A program made the translations under genes and the position numbers. Positions 57,977 to 63,733 of a DNA stretch of 64,000 nt are shown here, in pieces (positions within the stretch are counted from its first letter, which is position 1; every line of letters begins with the position of its first letter). Source of the DNA: Hexactinellida sp. DTS-2022 (lineage: Eukaryota; Porifera; Hexactinellida); contig JAPNXP010000002.1 of the NCBI GenBank assembly GCA_028753945.1, positions 310,001-374,000 on the forward strand. Reading direction: 5' to 3'. The notes below the pieces were generated by a model, which saw only the letters and a program-made list of their open reading frames with translations, had not been told where the DNA came from and did no database searches.

Positions 57977-59177
57977 TTTATTATTTCTTAACTCTTAATT
58001 TAAAACTTTATAAATATAGTGTAGTTAGCCTATACTATAGCAAGCAATATGTTATGGCACAAATGACGAATCCCACGGTATTGTTAACAGGCTTCAATTC
58101 GCGATATAAAGCCTATACTGTTAGTGTTATAAGTTGTTGTTTATGGGGAAATAATTGTTGTTATCAACAGCTGGATTTGTATATATTATAGGAAATAATT
58201 TATGTTAGTAATTGCTTAGTAAACAAATTATTTGTTGATTTTATTATACGAATATTTCTATGATTTATTGCAATTATTAACAGCTGATCTATAGACAAAT
58301 ATCGAATGTCTTAACGACGTCTTAGGCTAAATTGGAAGTGTTATTTTATGTTACATTCAAGATAAAACTGTCTGTAATGGAAATAACGCTATAACGGTAT
58401 TAAATGTCCGCTAAAAGTAAATGAAGAAAACACTGCAAGTTATGATCCGTAGATATTATCCTTCTGTCATTGGAAAATTGGTCCCGAAAAAATTGATCCG
58501 GGGGATCAATATTCAATGGAAAACTGGTCCTAGGACCATTTTTCCATTGAATATTGGTCTTGGTGTAAACGCGTTTTGGGACGCCCAGAGTTTAGGGGCC
58601 ACGTCCCTAAATTGCTAGCGTTTTGGGGCCCCTGGGCTTTAAACCACTAGCGATATAGGGACGTGGCCCCTAAACGCTGGGCGTCCCAAAAGCGCGGTTA
58701 CACCGGATCAATTTTTCGGGCACAATTCTTCAGTGACGGGCTTATTCATAAAATTTTTGGTCCCAATATGGCGAAGACTATTCTACTTTTCTAGTAAATA
58801 CGGTAACTAAATAAACACAAACCTCAGAGGGACCAATTTTCCACAGAAGGACCAATTTTCCAAGGGGACCAAAATTTCCGTGACACTTCTATGAAATTCG
58901 AAGTGGAAATACTACACTTAAGAAATGGAAATGGGTCAAACGAAGTGTTTTGTATCTCAGTTGGTTTGGAAATAGAATAATTTATGTATTTAGTATTTAT
59001 AAATATTGTCCCGAGCTTATTCACATTTCCCAAATTATTCTTTATTATTTGTTACAACATAATTCTATAAATTACCCAAATTATAATGAATTATTATTGT
59101 ATTAATAGACCATGGATGTAATTGTAAAAGATAAGTTTAAAACATGAAAAGTAAGTTTTGTATTATTAATTTGATAA
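57977..59177. other. Intergenic with a foldback element
   Basis: No gene recognised. The centre holds the GC-richer nested palindrome at 58463-58740; the remainder is AT-rich flank of palindrome 4. Confidence 0.6.
58463..58740. mobile_element. Foldback element with a palindrome inserted in one arm
   Basis: Outer ends CTGTCATTGGAAAATTGGTC and the complement of CACAATTCTTCAGTGACGG, then inner arms GGGACGCCCAGAGTTTAGGG / CCCTAAACGCTGGGCGTCCC. The left arm is interrupted at about 58503-58561 by a separate palindrome centred on GGTCCTAGGACC. Much richer in G and C than its surroundings. Confidence 0.75.
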
Positions 59178-59188
59178 CAAAACAATAA

Positions 59189-60424
59189 TTATTGACAAGA
59201 AAATATTTGTAGTCTGTAGTTAATATTCCTAGACACAATAATTAATTTCATGTTTTCAGTTAGAACTATTCCTCTAGGGTAATGAAACATTCCTACTTCA
59301 TGTCCTGGTTCCCCTATAGTGTGGAGGTGTGTCCCTTCTTTCGAGAATATTCTAACTTGTGCATTCCTCCAATCACTGATCAACAAATTCTGTTTTCTGT
59401 CCAAACAGAAGAATTCAGCTATTCCTATCTGCATTTCTATACCCCGTGTGATTAGGGAGCGTATCTTCTCTCCTGCGTGAGAGAACACGAGTATGCAGGG
59501 AGAGTATTCACAGAGCACGTACACCTCATCTGGTGTCAGTTTAACTTCACGCGGTTGTTTCATTGTTTGGTGCGTTATGGATCTTTGGAAGTGTAGGGAG
59601 TCATCTAGGACTTGGATTCTGTGGTTGTCAGAATCCGCTACGAACACATCTCCGTTGGTAGAGACGGAGAGTCCCATAGGGTCATTGAACTGTCCCACAC
59701 CAGATCCCTCACTCCCTAGTCTAGCGACGAGACGCATGTCAGCCTCTATTTTGAATCGGAACACAGCGTGTACTCCTTTGTCCGTCACGTACAGGTTGTC
59801 TCGATGGATCGCTATACCGTATGGCGCTATCATGTCTTGGTTTGTGAAAGTGTTTAGGAATTCGCCTGTCTCCGAGAAGATTGAGACTCTAAAGGAACAT
59901 GACCCTTCTGCGACATAAATTAGATTTGTGTTCTCATCGATAGCGACACCAAGAGGATACCAGAGCTCTCCAGGAGCAAATCCTTCCTTCCCGACAGCTA
60001 CAATCGGTCTCATTTCTTGGTATCGGGGTACAACGGACACCTCCTCCTCGACTACCTCTCCCACACCTGCGATCACCTGCTCCAGGTGTCCACAGGTGCC
60101 TCGGAACACCACGCGTGTCTCGGGCTGGGGTACCCTCACCTCTGCTAGCGCTTGTTCTAGTTCCGCTAGGATTCGCTCCTGGGTCTCTCTCAGTTCGTTC
60201 ATTTGGAAGAGACGCTCGGTTTCGGTTTTGAGTGCGATCAGTTCTTCTTCTTTTCGCGCGCGGGTTATGGGCCTATCGGCTATTTGGTCGCGTGTGTCGC
60301 GGTATGTGGTTAGGAGTGCCACTCGTCGCTGCTGGACACACATAATTATGCGGTCGAACAGTTGGTGTATTTCCAACTCGACAGGGTCTACGGGGTGTAT
60401 CGGGTCAGGGAATCGAACTGCCAT
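59189..60424 (-). CDS. NHL-repeat (TRIM-like) protein, left copy
   Basis: 411-residue intronless protein. The N-terminal part (about 1-105) is helical with a coiled coil (ARKEEELIALKTETERL, ELRETQERILAELEQAL). No RING, B-box or zinc ligands are visible, so it is not a ubiquitin ligase by itself. Residues about 138-411 form about six NHL blades, for example PYGIAIHRDNLYVTD and NDPMGLSVSTNGDVFVADSDNHRIQVL, making a beta-propeller of the TRIM2/3/71 type that binds protein or RNA. It differs from the right copy at about 50 residues plus two single-residue indels, concentrated in propeller loops, while silent differences number fewer than ten. Function unknown; recognition protein inferred. Confidence 0.82.
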   Translation of the reverse strand: MAVRFPDPIHPVDPVELEIHQLFDRIIMCVQQRRVALLTTYRDTRDQIADRPITRARKEEELIALKTETERLFQMNELRETQERILAELEQALAEVRVPQPETRVVFRGTCGHLEQVIAGVGEVVEEEVSVVPRYQEMRPIVAVGKEGFAPGELWYPLGVAIDENTNLIYVAEGSCSFRVSIFSETGEFLNTFTNQDMIAPYGIAIHRDNLYVTDKGVHAVFRFKIEADMRLVARLGSEGSGVGQFNDPMGLSVSTNGDVFVADSDNHRIQVLDDSLHFQRSITHQTMKQPREVKLTPDEVYVLCEYSPCILVFSHAGEKIRSLITRGIEMQIGIAEFFCLDRKQNLLISDWRNAQVRIFSKEGTHLHTIGEPGHEVGMFHYPRGIVLTENMKLIIVSRNINYRLQIFSCQ

Positions 60425-60512
60425 TTTGTTATTATTTGCTAGTTAGCTAGTTAGTGCTATCGAAAGGAAAGTAGTTTGTTAGTAGAATGCTATAGAGAAT
60501 GTGTCTCGTATC

Positions 60513-60522
60513 TTATAGCAGA
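60513..60522 (-). promoter_or_regulatory. TATA-like motif of the left NHL gene
   Basis: Minus-strand CTATAAGATA about 90 bp before the ATG, identical in the right arm. Confidence 0.4.
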
Positions 60523-61324
60523 GCTAGGTGGTGGAACTGAGTGGAATGTGGCATCTGTTTGTGTGCCGCCTCTTCTGATGCACATGGTGACTCCATCCAG
60601 TCAGGAATGTAGTGAAAGGAAATACTTTCATTTGTGAGTAATCTCACACCTCTCCTGGTTCCTGGAGAGACAGCTCTGCTAGGATATCAGATAGCTCAAA
60701 TGGAATGTGGCACAACCCAGTGCAAAGTACAAAATTACTTTCTTAGCTTAGAATCAAATTTCTTGCAATTCTTACAGAAAATGGATAGTTCCAATAATAA
60801 TAATCTTATGAATAATTGATTGTTCTATTCCTTCTAGAATATAGTTTTCAGGGGCCACAGTTAAACACTTTTAATTAACACTCAAATATGCCACTAATTC
60901 ATACTGTTAGAAATGTATCGTGTAGAGCCACAAAATGTGACACACAGCATATAAACACAAGTCTGTTTGTATTATTATTTGACTATTCTAAAAGAAGTTT
61001 AATTATTAGAAGAAATCGGATATTTTTAGAAAAATGATATCCTCTGATACTATTTCACCTTTGTTACGCTTCTAGGTCAATGGAATTTCAATGGAATTTA
61101 GAACAATGAGAAGATTAACAATGAATTGTCTATAGACCAGCTGTTAATAACAGCAATAAATCAGATAAATACTCTAATTAGAGTATAATAAACAAATATA
61201 ATTTGTTTACAAAGCAATTACTATCATATATTATTTCCTGTAATATTAACAAATTCAGCTTTTGTTAACAACTTTTAATAAAAACAATATTTGACTTTAT
61301 ATCCCGAATCTTCTTATTCTAAAC

Positions 61325-61809
61325 CAGGGTTGCCAATCCAATCCAATCGAGAAGATTTTCGATTGCCGATTGCTGCATTTTTCATCGATTGGATTATCGG
61401 TTGGATTGCTGCATTTTTCATCGATTGGATTGTCGATTGGATTGGTTCGATTTTTATCGATTGGATTGCAATCGATGAATTTCCATCGATTTTTTTCGAT
61501 TGTTTGTTTTTTCAATTTCTAAATAATGCCAAAATTAAAAATGATCAATTGCTCGTCAATTAAACCCAATAATATATGTTTTAAGTTTGAACATATGATG
61601 AAACATAACTCTTTTTGATATAATACTGAGGAGTAAACGATCGAAAAAAATCGGAGAAACAATCCAAAAAATCGATCATATTTTGGATTGTCGATTGCGA
61701 TTGGATTGTCATCCGAATAATCGATTGTCGAAATTTGGATTGCCGATTGTCCAAATTTGGCTCGATTGGATTGGATTGTCGATTGGATTGGATTGGATTG
61801 GCAACCCTG
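61325..61809. mobile_element. hAT-like MITE with perfect target duplication in the palindrome 4 spacer
   Basis: 485 bp bounded by CAGGGTTGCCAATCC and GGATTGGCAACCCTG and flanked by the identical 8-mer TTCTAAAC (61317-61324 and 61810-61817). The interior is made of GATTGGATT-type subrepeats on both sides. Confidence 0.92.
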
Positions 61810-62393
61810 TTCTAAACTCCATTTAAATTCCATTGACCTAGAAGCGTAACTAAGGTGAAATAGTATCAGAGGATATCACTTTTCTAAAAATATCCGATTT
61901 CTTCTAATAATTAAACTTCTTTAGAAGAGTCAAATAATAATACAAACAGACTTGTGTTTATATGTTGTGTGTCACATTTTGATGGCTCTATACGACACAT
62001 TTCTAACAGTGTAAATTAGTGGCATATTTGTAAGTGTTAAAGTGTTTAACTGTGGCCCCTGAAAACTATATTCTAGAAGAAATAGAACTATCAATTATTC
62101 ATAAGAATATTATAATTATTGGAACTATCCAATTTATGTAAGAATTGCAAGAAATTTGATTCTAAGCTAAGAAAGTATTTTAGTACTTTGCACTGGGTTG
62201 TGCCACATTCCATTTGGGCTATCTGGTATCCTAGCAGAGCTGTCTCTGCAGGAACCAGGAGAGGTGTGAGATTACTCACAAATGAAAGTATTTCCTTTCA
62301 CTACATTCCTGACTGGATGGAGTCACCATGTGCATCAGAAGAGGCGGCACACAAACAGATGCCACATTCCACTCAGTTCCACCACCTAGCTCT

Positions 62394-62403
62394 GCTATAA
62401 GAT
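62394..62403 (+). promoter_or_regulatory. TATA-like motif of the right NHL gene
   Basis: CTATAAGATA about 90 bp before the ATG at 62489; mirror of the motif at 60513-60522. Confidence 0.4.
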
Positions 62404-62488
62404 ACGAGACACATTCTCTACAGCATTCTACTAACAAATTACTTTCCTTTCCATAGCACTAACTAGCTAACTAGCAAATAATAACAAA

Positions 62489-63724
62489 ATGGCAGTTCGA
62501 TTCCCTGACCCGATACACCCCGTAGACCCTGTCGAGTTGGAAATAAACCAACTGTTCGACCGAATAATTATGTGTGTCCAGCAGCGACGAGTGGCACTCC
62601 TAACCACATACCGCGACACACGCGACCAAATAGCCGCTAGGCCCATAGAGCGCGCGCGAAAAGAAGAAGAACTGATCGGACTGAAAACCGAAACCGAGGC
62701 TCGTCTCCAAATGAACGAACTGAGAGAGACCCAGGAGCGAATCCTAGCGGAACTAGAACAAGCGCTAACAGAGGTGAGGGTACCCCAGCCCGAGACACGC
62801 GTGGTGTTCCGAGGCACCTGTGGACACCTGGAGCAGGTGATCGCAGGTGTGGGAGAGGTAGTCGAGGAGGAGGTGCCCGTTGTACCCCGATATGAACAAA
62901 TGAGACCGATTGTAGCTGTCGGGAAGAAAGGAAAAGCTCCTGGAGAGCTCTTGAGTCCTTTTGGTGTCGCTATCGATGAAAACACGAATCTAATTTATGT
63001 CGCAGAATTCGGTTCTTGTAGAGTCTCAATCTTCTCGGAGACAGGCGAATTCCTAGATACTTTCACAAACCAAGCCATGAGAGGGCCATTCGGTATAGCG
63101 ATCCATCGAGACAACCTGTACGTGACGGACACAGGAGTACACGCTGTGTTCCGATTCAAAATAGAGGCTGACATGCGTCTCGTCGCTAGCCTAGGGAGTG
63201 AGGGATCTGGTGTGGGACAGTTCAATGACCCTATGGGACTCTCCGTCTCTACCAACGGAGATGTGTTCGTAGCGGATTATAATAACCACAGAATCCAAGT
63301 CCTAGATGACTCCCTACACTTCCAAAGATCCATAACGCACCAAACAATGAAATCCCCGCGTGACGTTAAACTGACACCAGATGAGGTGTACGTGCTCTGT
63401 GAATACTCTCCCTGCATACTCGTGTTCTCTCACGCAGGAGAGAAGATACGCTCCCTAATCACACGGGGTACAGGAATGCAGATAGGAAGAGCTCACTTCT
63501 TCTGTTTGGACAGAAAACAGAATTTGCTGATCAGTGATTGGGGGAATGATCGAGTTAGAATATTCTCGAAAGAAGGGACACACCTCCACTTTATAGGGGC
63601 TCGAGGACAAAAAGTAAGAACGCTTCATAACCCTGAGGGAATAGTTCTAACTGAAAACATGAAATTAATTATGGTGTCCCAGAATAATAACTGGGCCAGA
63701 CTACAATTATTTTCTTGTCAATAA
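62489..63724 (+). CDS. NHL-repeat (TRIM-like) protein, right copy
   Basis: Inverted paralogue of 59189-60424: same 411-residue length, intronless, coiled coil then about six NHL blades (residues about 138-411), no RING or B-box. Identical scaffold strands alternate with changed loops. Examples, right against left: KSPRDV/KQPREV, ADYNNH/ADSDNH, GRAHFF/GIAEFF, WGNDRV/WRNAQV and GARGQKVRTLHNPEG/GEPGHEVGMFHYPRG. Transcribed away from its partner. The open frame with so many replacement changes argues against a pseudogene. Homology with the partner ends about 10 bp after the stop codon. Confidence 0.82.
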   Translation: MAVRFPDPIHPVDPVELEINQLFDRIIMCVQQRRVALLTTYRDTRDQIAARPIERARKEEELIGLKTETEARLQMNELRETQERILAELEQALTEVRVPQPETRVVFRGTCGHLEQVIAGVGEVVEEEVPVVPRYEQMRPIVAVGKKGKAPGELLSPFGVAIDENTNLIYVAEFGSCRVSIFSETGEFLDTFTNQAMRGPFGIAIHRDNLYVTDTGVHAVFRFKIEADMRLVASLGSEGSGVGQFNDPMGLSVSTNGDVFVADYNNHRIQVLDDSLHFQRSITHQTMKSPRDVKLTPDEVYVLCEYSPCILVFSHAGEKIRSLITRGTGMQIGRAHFFCLDRKQNLLISDWGNDRVRIFSKEGTHLHFIGARGQKVRTLHNPEGIVLTENMKLIMVSQNNNWARLQLFSCQ

Positions 63725-63733
63725 TTATTGTTA

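What the first reader, a model, noticed from the sequence alone, without database searches (positions are those of the whole stretch)
59189..63724. Palindromic NHL gene pair with diversified propeller loops
Aligned by eye, the two 411-residue proteins differ at about 50 positions plus two one-residue indels. Silent codon differences number fewer than ten. The adjoining 230 bp of non-coding arm differ at only about 2%. Changes cluster in NHL loop segments while strands are identical. Replacement divergence above non-coding divergence is the signature of diversifying selection on a binding surface, as in immune or self-recognition repertoires. An alternative is import of variable blocks by gene conversion from other family members.
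Basis: partly seen in the sequence, partly recalled or inferred. Interest (0 to 1): 0.9.

Follow-up and report, generated by a model that had tools for sequence, protein, structure and literature searches.

The report
Hypervariable propeller-protein recognition gene family
Two mirror-image genes belong to a family of over a hundred very similar animal proteins that differ mostly at the contact points of one binding face, as expected of a built-in recognition repertoire.

Summary
Two uninterrupted 411-aa NHL genes lie head to head in an inverted repeat and differ by 49 replacements; only 8 same-residue codons differ silently. They are a small sample of a large family: 61 loci of their own subfamily and 57 of a sister subfamily are listed, many near contig ends. 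Hypervariable (HV) sites were defined on database proteins from elsewhere. The pair differs at 28 of 49 HV sites but at 25 of 361 others. At HV codons, bases 1 and 2 differ in about 40% of paralogue pairs, while the silent C/T wobble differs no more than elsewhere (5.2% vs 4.8%). The sister subfamily repeats this. On the AlphaFold model 40 of 44 propeller HV sites lie in top-face elements; they fill 28 of 30 motif slots (x1x2Px3 and Dy1y2N in six blades), and those slot types hold 14 of 14 published RNA contacts of LIN41/TRIM71. Best explanation: strong diversifying selection on the ligand face of a germline recognition repertoire. Block gene conversion does not explain the variable codons. 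It works like the fungal HNWD propellers; my five searches listed no report of this for NHL.

The parts
59189..60424 (-). Gene A: uninterrupted 411-aa ORF, N-terminal helix plus six-bladed NHL propeller (propeller codons about 59192-60004)
   Evidence: ORF; NHL 86.5 bits; comparison; architecture taken from the model of gene B
62489..63724 (+). Gene B: uninterrupted 411-aa partner, same architecture (propeller codons 62909-63721)
   Evidence: ORF; NHL 81 bits; AlphaFold model mean pLDDT 83, propeller blocks mostly 86-98 with lower ones at 321-330 (79), 371-380 (63), 401-410 (81)
62528..62773 (+). Gene B codons 14-95: long helix, a likely coiled coil (multimerisation inferred)
   Evidence: secondary structure of the model; residues 1-140 have dN 0.057, dS 0.105 in 28 paralogues
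62951..63013 (+). Blade 1 variable slots of gene B: residues 155,156,158 and 174,175
63080..63136 (+). Blade 2 slots: residues 198,199,201 and 215,216 (198 is not in the HV set)
63224..63283 (+). Blade 3 slots: residues 246,247,249 and 264,265
63350..63406 (+). Blade 4 slots: residues 288,289,291 and 305,306
63485..63544 (+). Blade 5 slots: residues 333,334,336 and 351,352
63626..63685 (+). Blade 6 slots: residues 380,381,383 and 398,399 (399 is not in the HV set)
60425..61105 (.). Left non-coding arm (upstream of gene A), inverted copy of the right arm
   Evidence: 30 mismatches in 680 aligned positions; I1, I3, I5, I6, I9
61808..62488 (.). Right non-coding arm (upstream of gene B)
   Evidence: A and B share 681 bp upstream, 19 other copies examined share 102-532 bp with B
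61106..61324 (.). Insertion in the left arm only, partly similar (76-82%) to a repeat at 58152-58298
   Evidence: I4 and I7; alignment
61325..61812 (.). Short dispersed element with terminal inverted repeats (MITE-like) at the centre of the palindrome
   Evidence: 40 copies scored of 302 candidates, this one included; the others 93-98% identical over most of the length; inverted ends I11
63725..63732 (+). 3' end of the unit shared by A and B, just past the stop (left counterpart 59181-59188); in other copies the match to B also ends 2-13 bp past the stop
   Evidence: I10

Best explanation
The two genes are members of a germline-encoded recognition repertoire: over a hundred genes in this genome with uninterrupted frames, each coding for an N-terminal helix (probably a coiled coil) and a six-bladed NHL propeller. 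The scaffold is held nearly constant. About 30 residues, five per blade, at the loops of the propeller's top face are replaced again and again, so each gene presents a different contact surface. SHOWN: family size, mostly intact frames, site pattern, location in the elements of one face, excess of replacements over silent changes, replication in a second subfamily. INFERRED: the protein multimerises through its helix, binds variable ligands through the top face, works inside the cell (no signal peptide or membrane segment seen by eye; no predictor run), and is selected for recognising many or changing foreign or self molecules. The palindrome itself is a segmental inverted duplication of one upstream-plus-coding unit that now has a MITE-like element at its centre; I found no evidence that gives it a role of its own.
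For: Pair and family: HV sites were defined on 78 database proteins (entropy over 1.5 bits); none of the 120 database proteins listed is identical to any of the 41 members compared. A and B differ at 28/49 HV sites vs 25/361 others. Selection: mean pairwise dN at propeller HV sites 0.551 vs backbone dS 0.087 in 28 other paralogues; the sister subfamily with transferred sites gives 0.421 vs 0.144. Parsimony counts at HV sites: 688 replacement vs 57 silent changes over 44 sites in 28 genes, and 472 vs 27 over 43 sites in 27 genes; the rest of the propeller gives 273 vs 191 and 274 vs 241. Wobble control: C/T third-base difference 5.2% at HV codons vs 4.8% elsewhere in the propeller, while bases 1 and 2 differ at 41% and 40%; sister subfamily 6.2% vs 6.0%. 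Structure: 40/44 HV sites in top-face elements, which hold 103 of 259 residues, p = 1.3e-14; in all six A strands the HV residue is the second one. Slots: 28/30 slots HV vs 16/241 other propeller positions; 14/14 LIN41 RNA contacts (PMC5908797, abstract and passages) fall in the same slot types. Trp is 5.3% at HV sites and 0.0% in the propeller backbone. All 108 proteins compared have distinct 30-slot combinations. Constraint elsewhere: propeller backbone dN/dS 0.43, N-terminus 0.54. Of the 61 best-scoring subfamily hits, 2 have in-frame stops.
Against: No expression, binding, population or infection data. The pair's overall ratio is only 1.2-1.3. NG86 dS computed at the HV sites themselves is raised in the pair's subfamily (0.187 vs 0.087 elsewhere; 0.237 vs 0.039 for the pair), though not in the sister subfamily (0.149 vs 0.144), so ratios taken within the HV class are only 2.9, 2.0 and 2.8; I ascribe the rise to silent steps on multi-base paths because the pure wobble test shows none. 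Site-by-site binomial tests are weak: 12 sites in one subfamily and 6 in the other reach p<0.05 with at least 5 changes (10 and 5 of them in the HV set), uncorrected for multiple tests and on trees that recombination makes unreliable. The rate multiple is poorly bounded: about 3-6 from pairwise distances, about 8 in the sister subfamily by curve fit (5% bound 5.6), and formally 25 or more in the pair's subfamily where the curve is flat. Slot charge is near neutral (mean +1.4 here, +0.7 in the other set), so RNA is not a clear ligand. The fold match is to TRIM-NHL proteins, which also have non-immune roles. The face was assigned from the order of strands and loops, since no model coordinates were available to the scripts, and some variable loops are modelled with low confidence.
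Confidence: 0.72

Rival explanations
1. The variable codons are imported as blocks by gene conversion from other family members; diversity is shuffled, not newly selected.
For: The family recombines or is star-like: in the pair's subfamily no linkage is seen in the propeller at any distance for any class of site. The N-terminal stretch 64-74 occurs in a few recurring cassettes. Gene A's lowest silent distances are to other members (L047 0.051), not to B (0.058). The unit shared with B stops 2-13 bp past the stop codon in the 19 other copies aligned.
Against: In the sister subfamily ordinary neighbours are linked (z 4.8 within 3 codons) but HV codons hardly to each other (0.95) or to neighbours (0.76). 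Adjacent HV codons are nearly independent across 108 proteins (median sharing ratio 1.09 for 12 pairs one codon apart). Conversion can move variants but does not by itself create replacements that leave the wobble base undisturbed.
Confidence: 0.1
2. A dedicated mutator aimed at these codons (diversity-generating-retroelement-like or deaminase-like) creates the variation.
For: Bases 1 and 2 vary while base 3 mostly stays, which loosely recalls AAY-type templates (recalled, no call). The HV difference is flat at about 0.65 from 1% to 12% four-fold divergence in the pair's subfamily.
Against: Third bases at HV sites include all four letters and, read by eye, change mainly where the residue requires it. 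The silent wobble rate is at background. Changes are mixed, 7142 transitions vs 8366 transversions among pairwise differences, not a deaminase pattern. One close pair (L002/L003) has 2/42 HV changes with 4 silent codon differences and 10/363 other replacements, no burst at HV sites. No search for a reverse transcriptase or template was made.
Confidence: 0.05
3. The proteins are RNA regulators (TRIM71/Brat-like) whose specificity diverged for developmental or transposon control, not immunity.
For: The closest solved structures are NHL domains of TRIM71, Thin, TRIM2, TRIM3 and Brat. All 14 RNA contacts listed for LIN41 lie in the variable slot types.
Against: Near-neutral slot charge varying from -4 to +6 here and -5 to +6 in the other set; copies that cluster by source with an all-distinct slot repertoire are unusual for developmental regulators (judgement).
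Confidence: 0.15
4. It is an antigenic-variation type family of a parasite or commensal animal: copies near contig ends that display variants to a host.
For: 45 of the 61 best-scoring subfamily loci lie within 500 kb of a contig end where about 14% is expected; loci are clustered, so they are not independent.
Against: No signal peptide or membrane anchor is apparent (by eye; no predictor was run). The sister subfamily has a large cluster at C1 13.67-13.80 Mb of a 17.6-Mb contig. The genome has at least 153 SRCR matches, which I read as more like a free-living invertebrate.
Confidence: 0.05
5. Relaxed constraint or pseudogenes.
For: Some copies are truncated or carry stops, and L059 ends in unrelated sequence.
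Against: 2 of the 61 best-scoring subfamily hits carry in-frame stops; backbone dN/dS 0.43 and N-terminus 0.54; replacements largely avoid strands.
Confidence: 0.02

Closest known systems
HNWD family of Podospora anserina (NLR-type proteins with WD40 propellers); PMC2873952, passages read
   Same: A propeller in a recognition gene family; a fixed small set of codons per repeat (7, 9, 25, 27) under positive selection, modelled at the top of the propeller; exchange among family members.
   Different: Fungal, WD40 not NHL, other partner domains (HET; NACHT recalled), highly conserved repeat units inside each gene that are shuffled. Here the blades of one gene differ, no NACHT or HET domain is found, and variable codons do not travel in blocks where that could be tested.
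TRIM-NHL proteins (TRIM71/LIN41, TRIM2, TRIM3, Thin, Brat)
   Same: NHL propeller with sequence match E about 1e-35 and Foldseek E down to 1e-21; the same top-face slot types hold the RNA contacts of LIN41; a helix before the propeller.
   Different: No RING or B-box found; over a hundred copies with uninterrupted frames in one genome; hypervariable slots.
TRIM-B30.2 families (TRIM5alpha, fish finTRIMs) (recalled; PMC3137616 seen in a search listing only)
   Same: Expanded coiled-coil plus recognition-domain genes with diversifying selection in loops of the recognition domain (recalled).
   Different: B30.2/SPRY domain instead of a propeller, RING-bearing, vertebrate (recalled).
Expanded animal receptor families: zebrafish NLRs (PMC4852459, listing), sponge SRCR/NLR repertoires (PMC8242945, passages)
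   Same: Very many germline receptor genes in one genome.
   Different: Different domains; in the PMC8242945 passages shown, the screened classes are TIR receptors, NLR, CTLD, SRCR and GPCR; its single NHL mention was not among the passages shown.

Membership tests
TRIM-NHL (TRIM subfamily C; name from PMC3503706, passages) | NHL six-bladed propeller | tested here: met
   Pfam NHL 81 and 86.5 bits; strands of six blades in the model; top Foldseek hits TRIM71/Lin41
TRIM-NHL (TRIM subfamily C; name from PMC3503706, passages) | RING finger and B-box | tested here: not met
   no such Pfam match at E up to 1 in either protein
TRIM-NHL (TRIM subfamily C; name from PMC3503706, passages) | coiled coil before the propeller | tested here: inconclusive
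   one helix, residues 14-95, in the model; multimerisation not modelled
Germline repertoire under diversifying selection (HNWD-like in operation) | replacement excess at a defined set of surface codons | tested here: met
   (pooled; single-site tests weak)
Germline repertoire under diversifying selection (HNWD-like in operation) | selected sites on one face of the propeller | tested here: met
   40 of 44 in top-face elements; 28 of 30 slots
HNWD / NLR proteins | NACHT and HET or LRR domains | tested here: not met
   no Pfam match at E up to 1
Immune or self-recognition receptors | binding to foreign or self ligands, induced expression, allelic polymorphism | not testable with these tools
   no expression, population or binding data
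Diversity-generating retroelement | adenine-specific change from a template repeat plus a reverse transcriptase | not tested
   no RT or template search was made; codon tables do not show an adenine-only pattern
Palindromic gene pair (inverted duplication) | two arms in inverted orientation, similar beyond the coding part | tested here: met

The most novel reading that the evidence does not exclude
The animal carries an anticipatory, germline RNA-sensing repertoire: many TRIM-NHL-derived proteins whose LIN41-type RNA-contact slots have been randomised by selection, so that each copy reads a different RNA shape or sequence (viral or transposon), multimerising through the helix to act on it.
Probability: 0.1. 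Interest if true: 0.95.

Novelty: new variant of a known kind. Interest (0 to 1): 0.8.

Why it matters
It would add a new scaffold, the NHL propeller, to the short list of protein folds that organisms have turned into large variable recognition repertoires. The variable sites form a simple code, five slots per blade in six blades, and those slot types are the ones LIN41/TRIM71 uses to grip RNA. That makes ligand discovery directly testable: sequence determines the face, the backbone is nearly constant, and many natural variants exist in one genome. If the host is a sponge, as is guessed but not shown, it would bear on how animals without antibodies distinguish microbes or self.

Tried and rejected
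(1) Extreme rate ratios of 25-45. In one search I compared HV differences with an 'independence expectation' of 0.649; that number equals the mean pairwise difference by construction and proves nothing about saturation. The curve fit is unbounded for the pair's subfamily, so I rely on about 3-8. (2) Linkage contrast in the pair's subfamily: the non-HV linkage (z 4.15) vanishes when restricted to the propeller, so it came from the N-terminus, and only the sister subfamily supports that argument. (3) Identical-backbone-run test: ordinary polymorphic codons behaved almost like HV codons, so the test has little power. (4) let-7 search to place the organism: nothing rang, including the controls, so it is uninformative. 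(5) Organism by text search: 3 of the 11 sponge genome notes listed have 18 chromosomes (141-191 Mb), the other 8 have 14-25, and many non-sponges also have 18; no 112-Mb match was found. (6) Ancient balanced variation plus homogenised backbone: rejected because the wobble base one position away from the variable bases is no more diverged than elsewhere. (7) Papers on an NHL repertoire: five searches of one open-licence library listed no paper whose title or listed abstract describes one.

Rows dropped. Of 769 homologues 120 were listed; 110 passed the length filter (395-425 aa) and 78 were used as same-C-terminus type. Of 41 distinct subfamily genes, L059 (unrelated tail) and 10 with a different C-terminus were left out of the 30 used for rates. 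L038 (no ATG at the expected start) and fragment loci were not used. For the contig-end count only the 61 best-scoring rows of 107 were used; later rows, many of them partial, were left out. Sister subfamily: 27 of the 57 rows at 81% identity or more were analysed.


Full report
What is there. The window is bases 310001-374000 of contig C11 of an unnamed 112.4-Mb genome in 18 contigs. Two uninterrupted ORFs of 411 codons lie head to head at 59189-60424 (-) and 62489-63724 (+). The arms are inverted copies of one unit: about 680 bp upstream, the coding sequence, and about 8 bp after the stop. The centre holds a 488-bp dispersed element with terminal inverted repeats, of which 40 copies were scored out of 302 candidates, the others 93-98% identical to this one, and the left arm has a further insertion. 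The pair differs by 49 residues and 4 gap columns; 8 of 346 same-residue codons differ silently. NG86 gives dN 0.068-0.075 and dS 0.057-0.058 for the whole pair, a ratio of 1.2-1.3, so the pair taken whole is a modest case. The striking part is where the changes sit.

The family. With gene B as query the genome gave 107 matches (101 of 1203 candidates scored, so a lower bound), of which the 61 best-scoring are at 66-100% identity. A sister subfamily beginning MATNM gave 57 rows at 81-100% and a further group at 54-58%. The NHL profile itself gave 150 matches, the number scored out of 2268 candidates. 45 of the 61 loci lie within 500 kb of a contig end, where about 14% is expected (loci are clustered, so not independent). 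All eight contig ends that I read are tandem repeats of a 211-212-bp unit, 83-100% self-matching, with no tandem TTAGGG-type motif in those 600 bases. 2 of the 61 loci carry in-frame stops. The 19 other copies whose flanks were aligned share 102-532 bp of upstream sequence with gene B and end 2-13 bp past the stop, whereas A and B share 681 bp, so A and B are a real inverted duplicate.

Hypervariable sites, defined without the pair. A protein search returned 769 relatives (120 listed, best 84% identity). None of the 120 is identical to any of the 41 members compared, so they come from other repertoire(s); which species is not stated. Entropy over 1.5 bits in 78 of them marks 49 sites, 44 in the propeller. 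A and B differ at 28 of the 49 and at 25 of 361 others (odds ratio 17.9, p = 4.7e-16). Site entropies in the two sets correlate (Spearman 0.61). Backbones cluster by source (29 of 30 own genes nearest to own, 78 of 78 others nearest to others), yet the same sites vary in both.

Selection, not local mutation. In 28 other paralogues the HV sites have mean dN 0.551, while the rest of the propeller has dN 0.037 and dS 0.087 and the N-terminus 0.057 and 0.105. At HV codons bases 1, 2 and 3 differ in 41%, 40% and 22% of pairs; read by eye, third-base changes track the residue. The always-silent C/T wobble differs in 5.2% of eligible pairs at HV codons and 4.8% in the rest of the propeller. That base sits one position from the selected ones and shares their history, so HV alleles are neither unusually old nor produced by a process that hits all three bases. 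Against this, NG86 dS at HV sites is itself 0.187 (0.237 in the pair), so a ratio taken within the class is 2.9 (2.0 in the pair); I think silent steps on multi-base paths inflate it. The sister subfamily, with sites transferred by alignment, agrees: dN 0.421 and dS 0.149 at HV, 0.048 and 0.144 elsewhere, wobble 6.2% vs 6.0%. Parsimony on trees gives 688 replacement and 57 silent changes at 44 HV sites against 273 and 191 at 226 backbone sites, and 472 and 27 against 274 and 241 in the sister subfamily. Single sites rarely reach significance alone: 12 and 6 sites at p<0.05, of which 10 and 5 are in the HV set. I put the HV replacement rate at roughly 3-8 times the silent rate. The flat curve in the pair's subfamily would allow much more, but noise and recombination make that unsafe.

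Gene conversion. Recombination seems common, but the HV codons are not carried in blocks in the subfamily where this can be tested. Across 108 proteins adjacent HV positions are almost independent. Recent copies do exist: L002/L003 have 4 silent and 2 of 42 HV differences; L009/L026 have 11 silent and 12 of 42.

Structure. AlphaFold2 gives a helix at 14-95, a low-confidence linker and a mostly confident six-bladed propeller, with weaker stretches at 321-330 and 371-380. Which face is 'top' (BC and DA loops) is recalled convention, and the face was read from the order of strands and loops, not from coordinates. 40 of 44 HV sites are in DA loops, BC loops or the first three residues of A strands; AB loops hold 0 of 26 residues and CD loops 1 of 24; in every A strand the HV residue is the second one. 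In motif terms the sites are x1x2Px3 and Dy1y2N in each blade: 28 of 30 such slots are HV against 16 of 241 other positions. I defined the slots after seeing both patterns, so that p-value describes rather than tests. The independent fact is that all 14 RNA-contacting residues listed for zebrafish LIN41 (PMC5908797, abstract and passages) fall in these slot types when placed on the TRIM71 sequence printed; one numbering offset of 543 fits all five blades. Slot composition is rich in Arg, Tyr, Gly, Asn and Trp with net charge near zero, to my reading more like a mixed protein-binding surface than a pure RNA-binding one. Foldseek and sequence both place the domain with TRIM71, Thin, TRIM2/3 and Brat; no RING, B-box, NACHT or HET domain is found by Pfam.

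Comparison. The closest system in operation is the fungal HNWD family, where four codons of each WD40 repeat, modelled at the top of the propeller, are under positive selection (PMC2873952, passages). The present family is not a member: different propeller, no NACHT or HET domain. It is TRIM-NHL by domain but not a TRIM by definition. Five literature searches of one open-licence library listed nothing that describes an NHL repertoire of this kind.

Organism. Window ORFs look, by eye, like a PI4-kinase, a derlin, saposins, a tetraspanin and an NPC2-like protein (names recalled, not searched), and the genome has at least 153 SRCR matches. Three of 11 sponges have 18 chromosomes, as do many other animals. 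A sponge is a guess, not a result.

Noticed in passing
window 61325-61812: MITE-like element with terminal inverted repeats (GGTTGCCAATCCAATCC...); 40 copies scored of 302 candidates, the others 93-98% identical.
   Followed up: yes
window 58504-58559 and 58574-58691: Two short inverted repeats with 0-2 nt between the arms (28 nt at 93%, 58 nt at 86%), possible fold-back elements beside gene A.
   Followed up: no
window 58152-58298 and 61126-61277: A repeat in inverted copies (76-82%); the second copy lies in the left arm of the palindrome only.
   Followed up: no
G000 C1:13.67-13.80 Mb: Dense cluster of 20 full-length sister-subfamily NHL rows, including one pair with no silent differences (L008/L009); one copy is in the opposite orientation.
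   Followed up: partly
residues 64-74 of the family proteins (window 62678-62710 in gene B): Short stretch in the N-terminal helix occurring in a few recurring cassettes (LKTETERLFQ, LKTETEARLQ, LKAQTEQSLQ), the one place that looks like block exchange.
   Followed up: partly
3' ends of family genes: In 18 of 21 copies printed the stop codon is part of a CAATAA sequence, mostly followed by a T- or GT-rich run, as if the polyadenylation signal began inside the coding end.
   Followed up: partly
G000 contig ends (L067-L074): Eight ends of contigs C5, C7, C11 (both), C12, C13, C14 and C15 are tandem repeats of one 211-212-bp unit, with no classical telomere repeat in the 600 bases read.
   Followed up: yes
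G000 C13:1.25-1.29 Mb: SRCR matches repeated as near-identical units about 7.66 kb apart.
   Followed up: no
L059 (C5:5280651-5281901): A family member whose match to gene B stops at residue 366 and whose C-terminus is unrelated sequence, perhaps an insertion.
   Followed up: no
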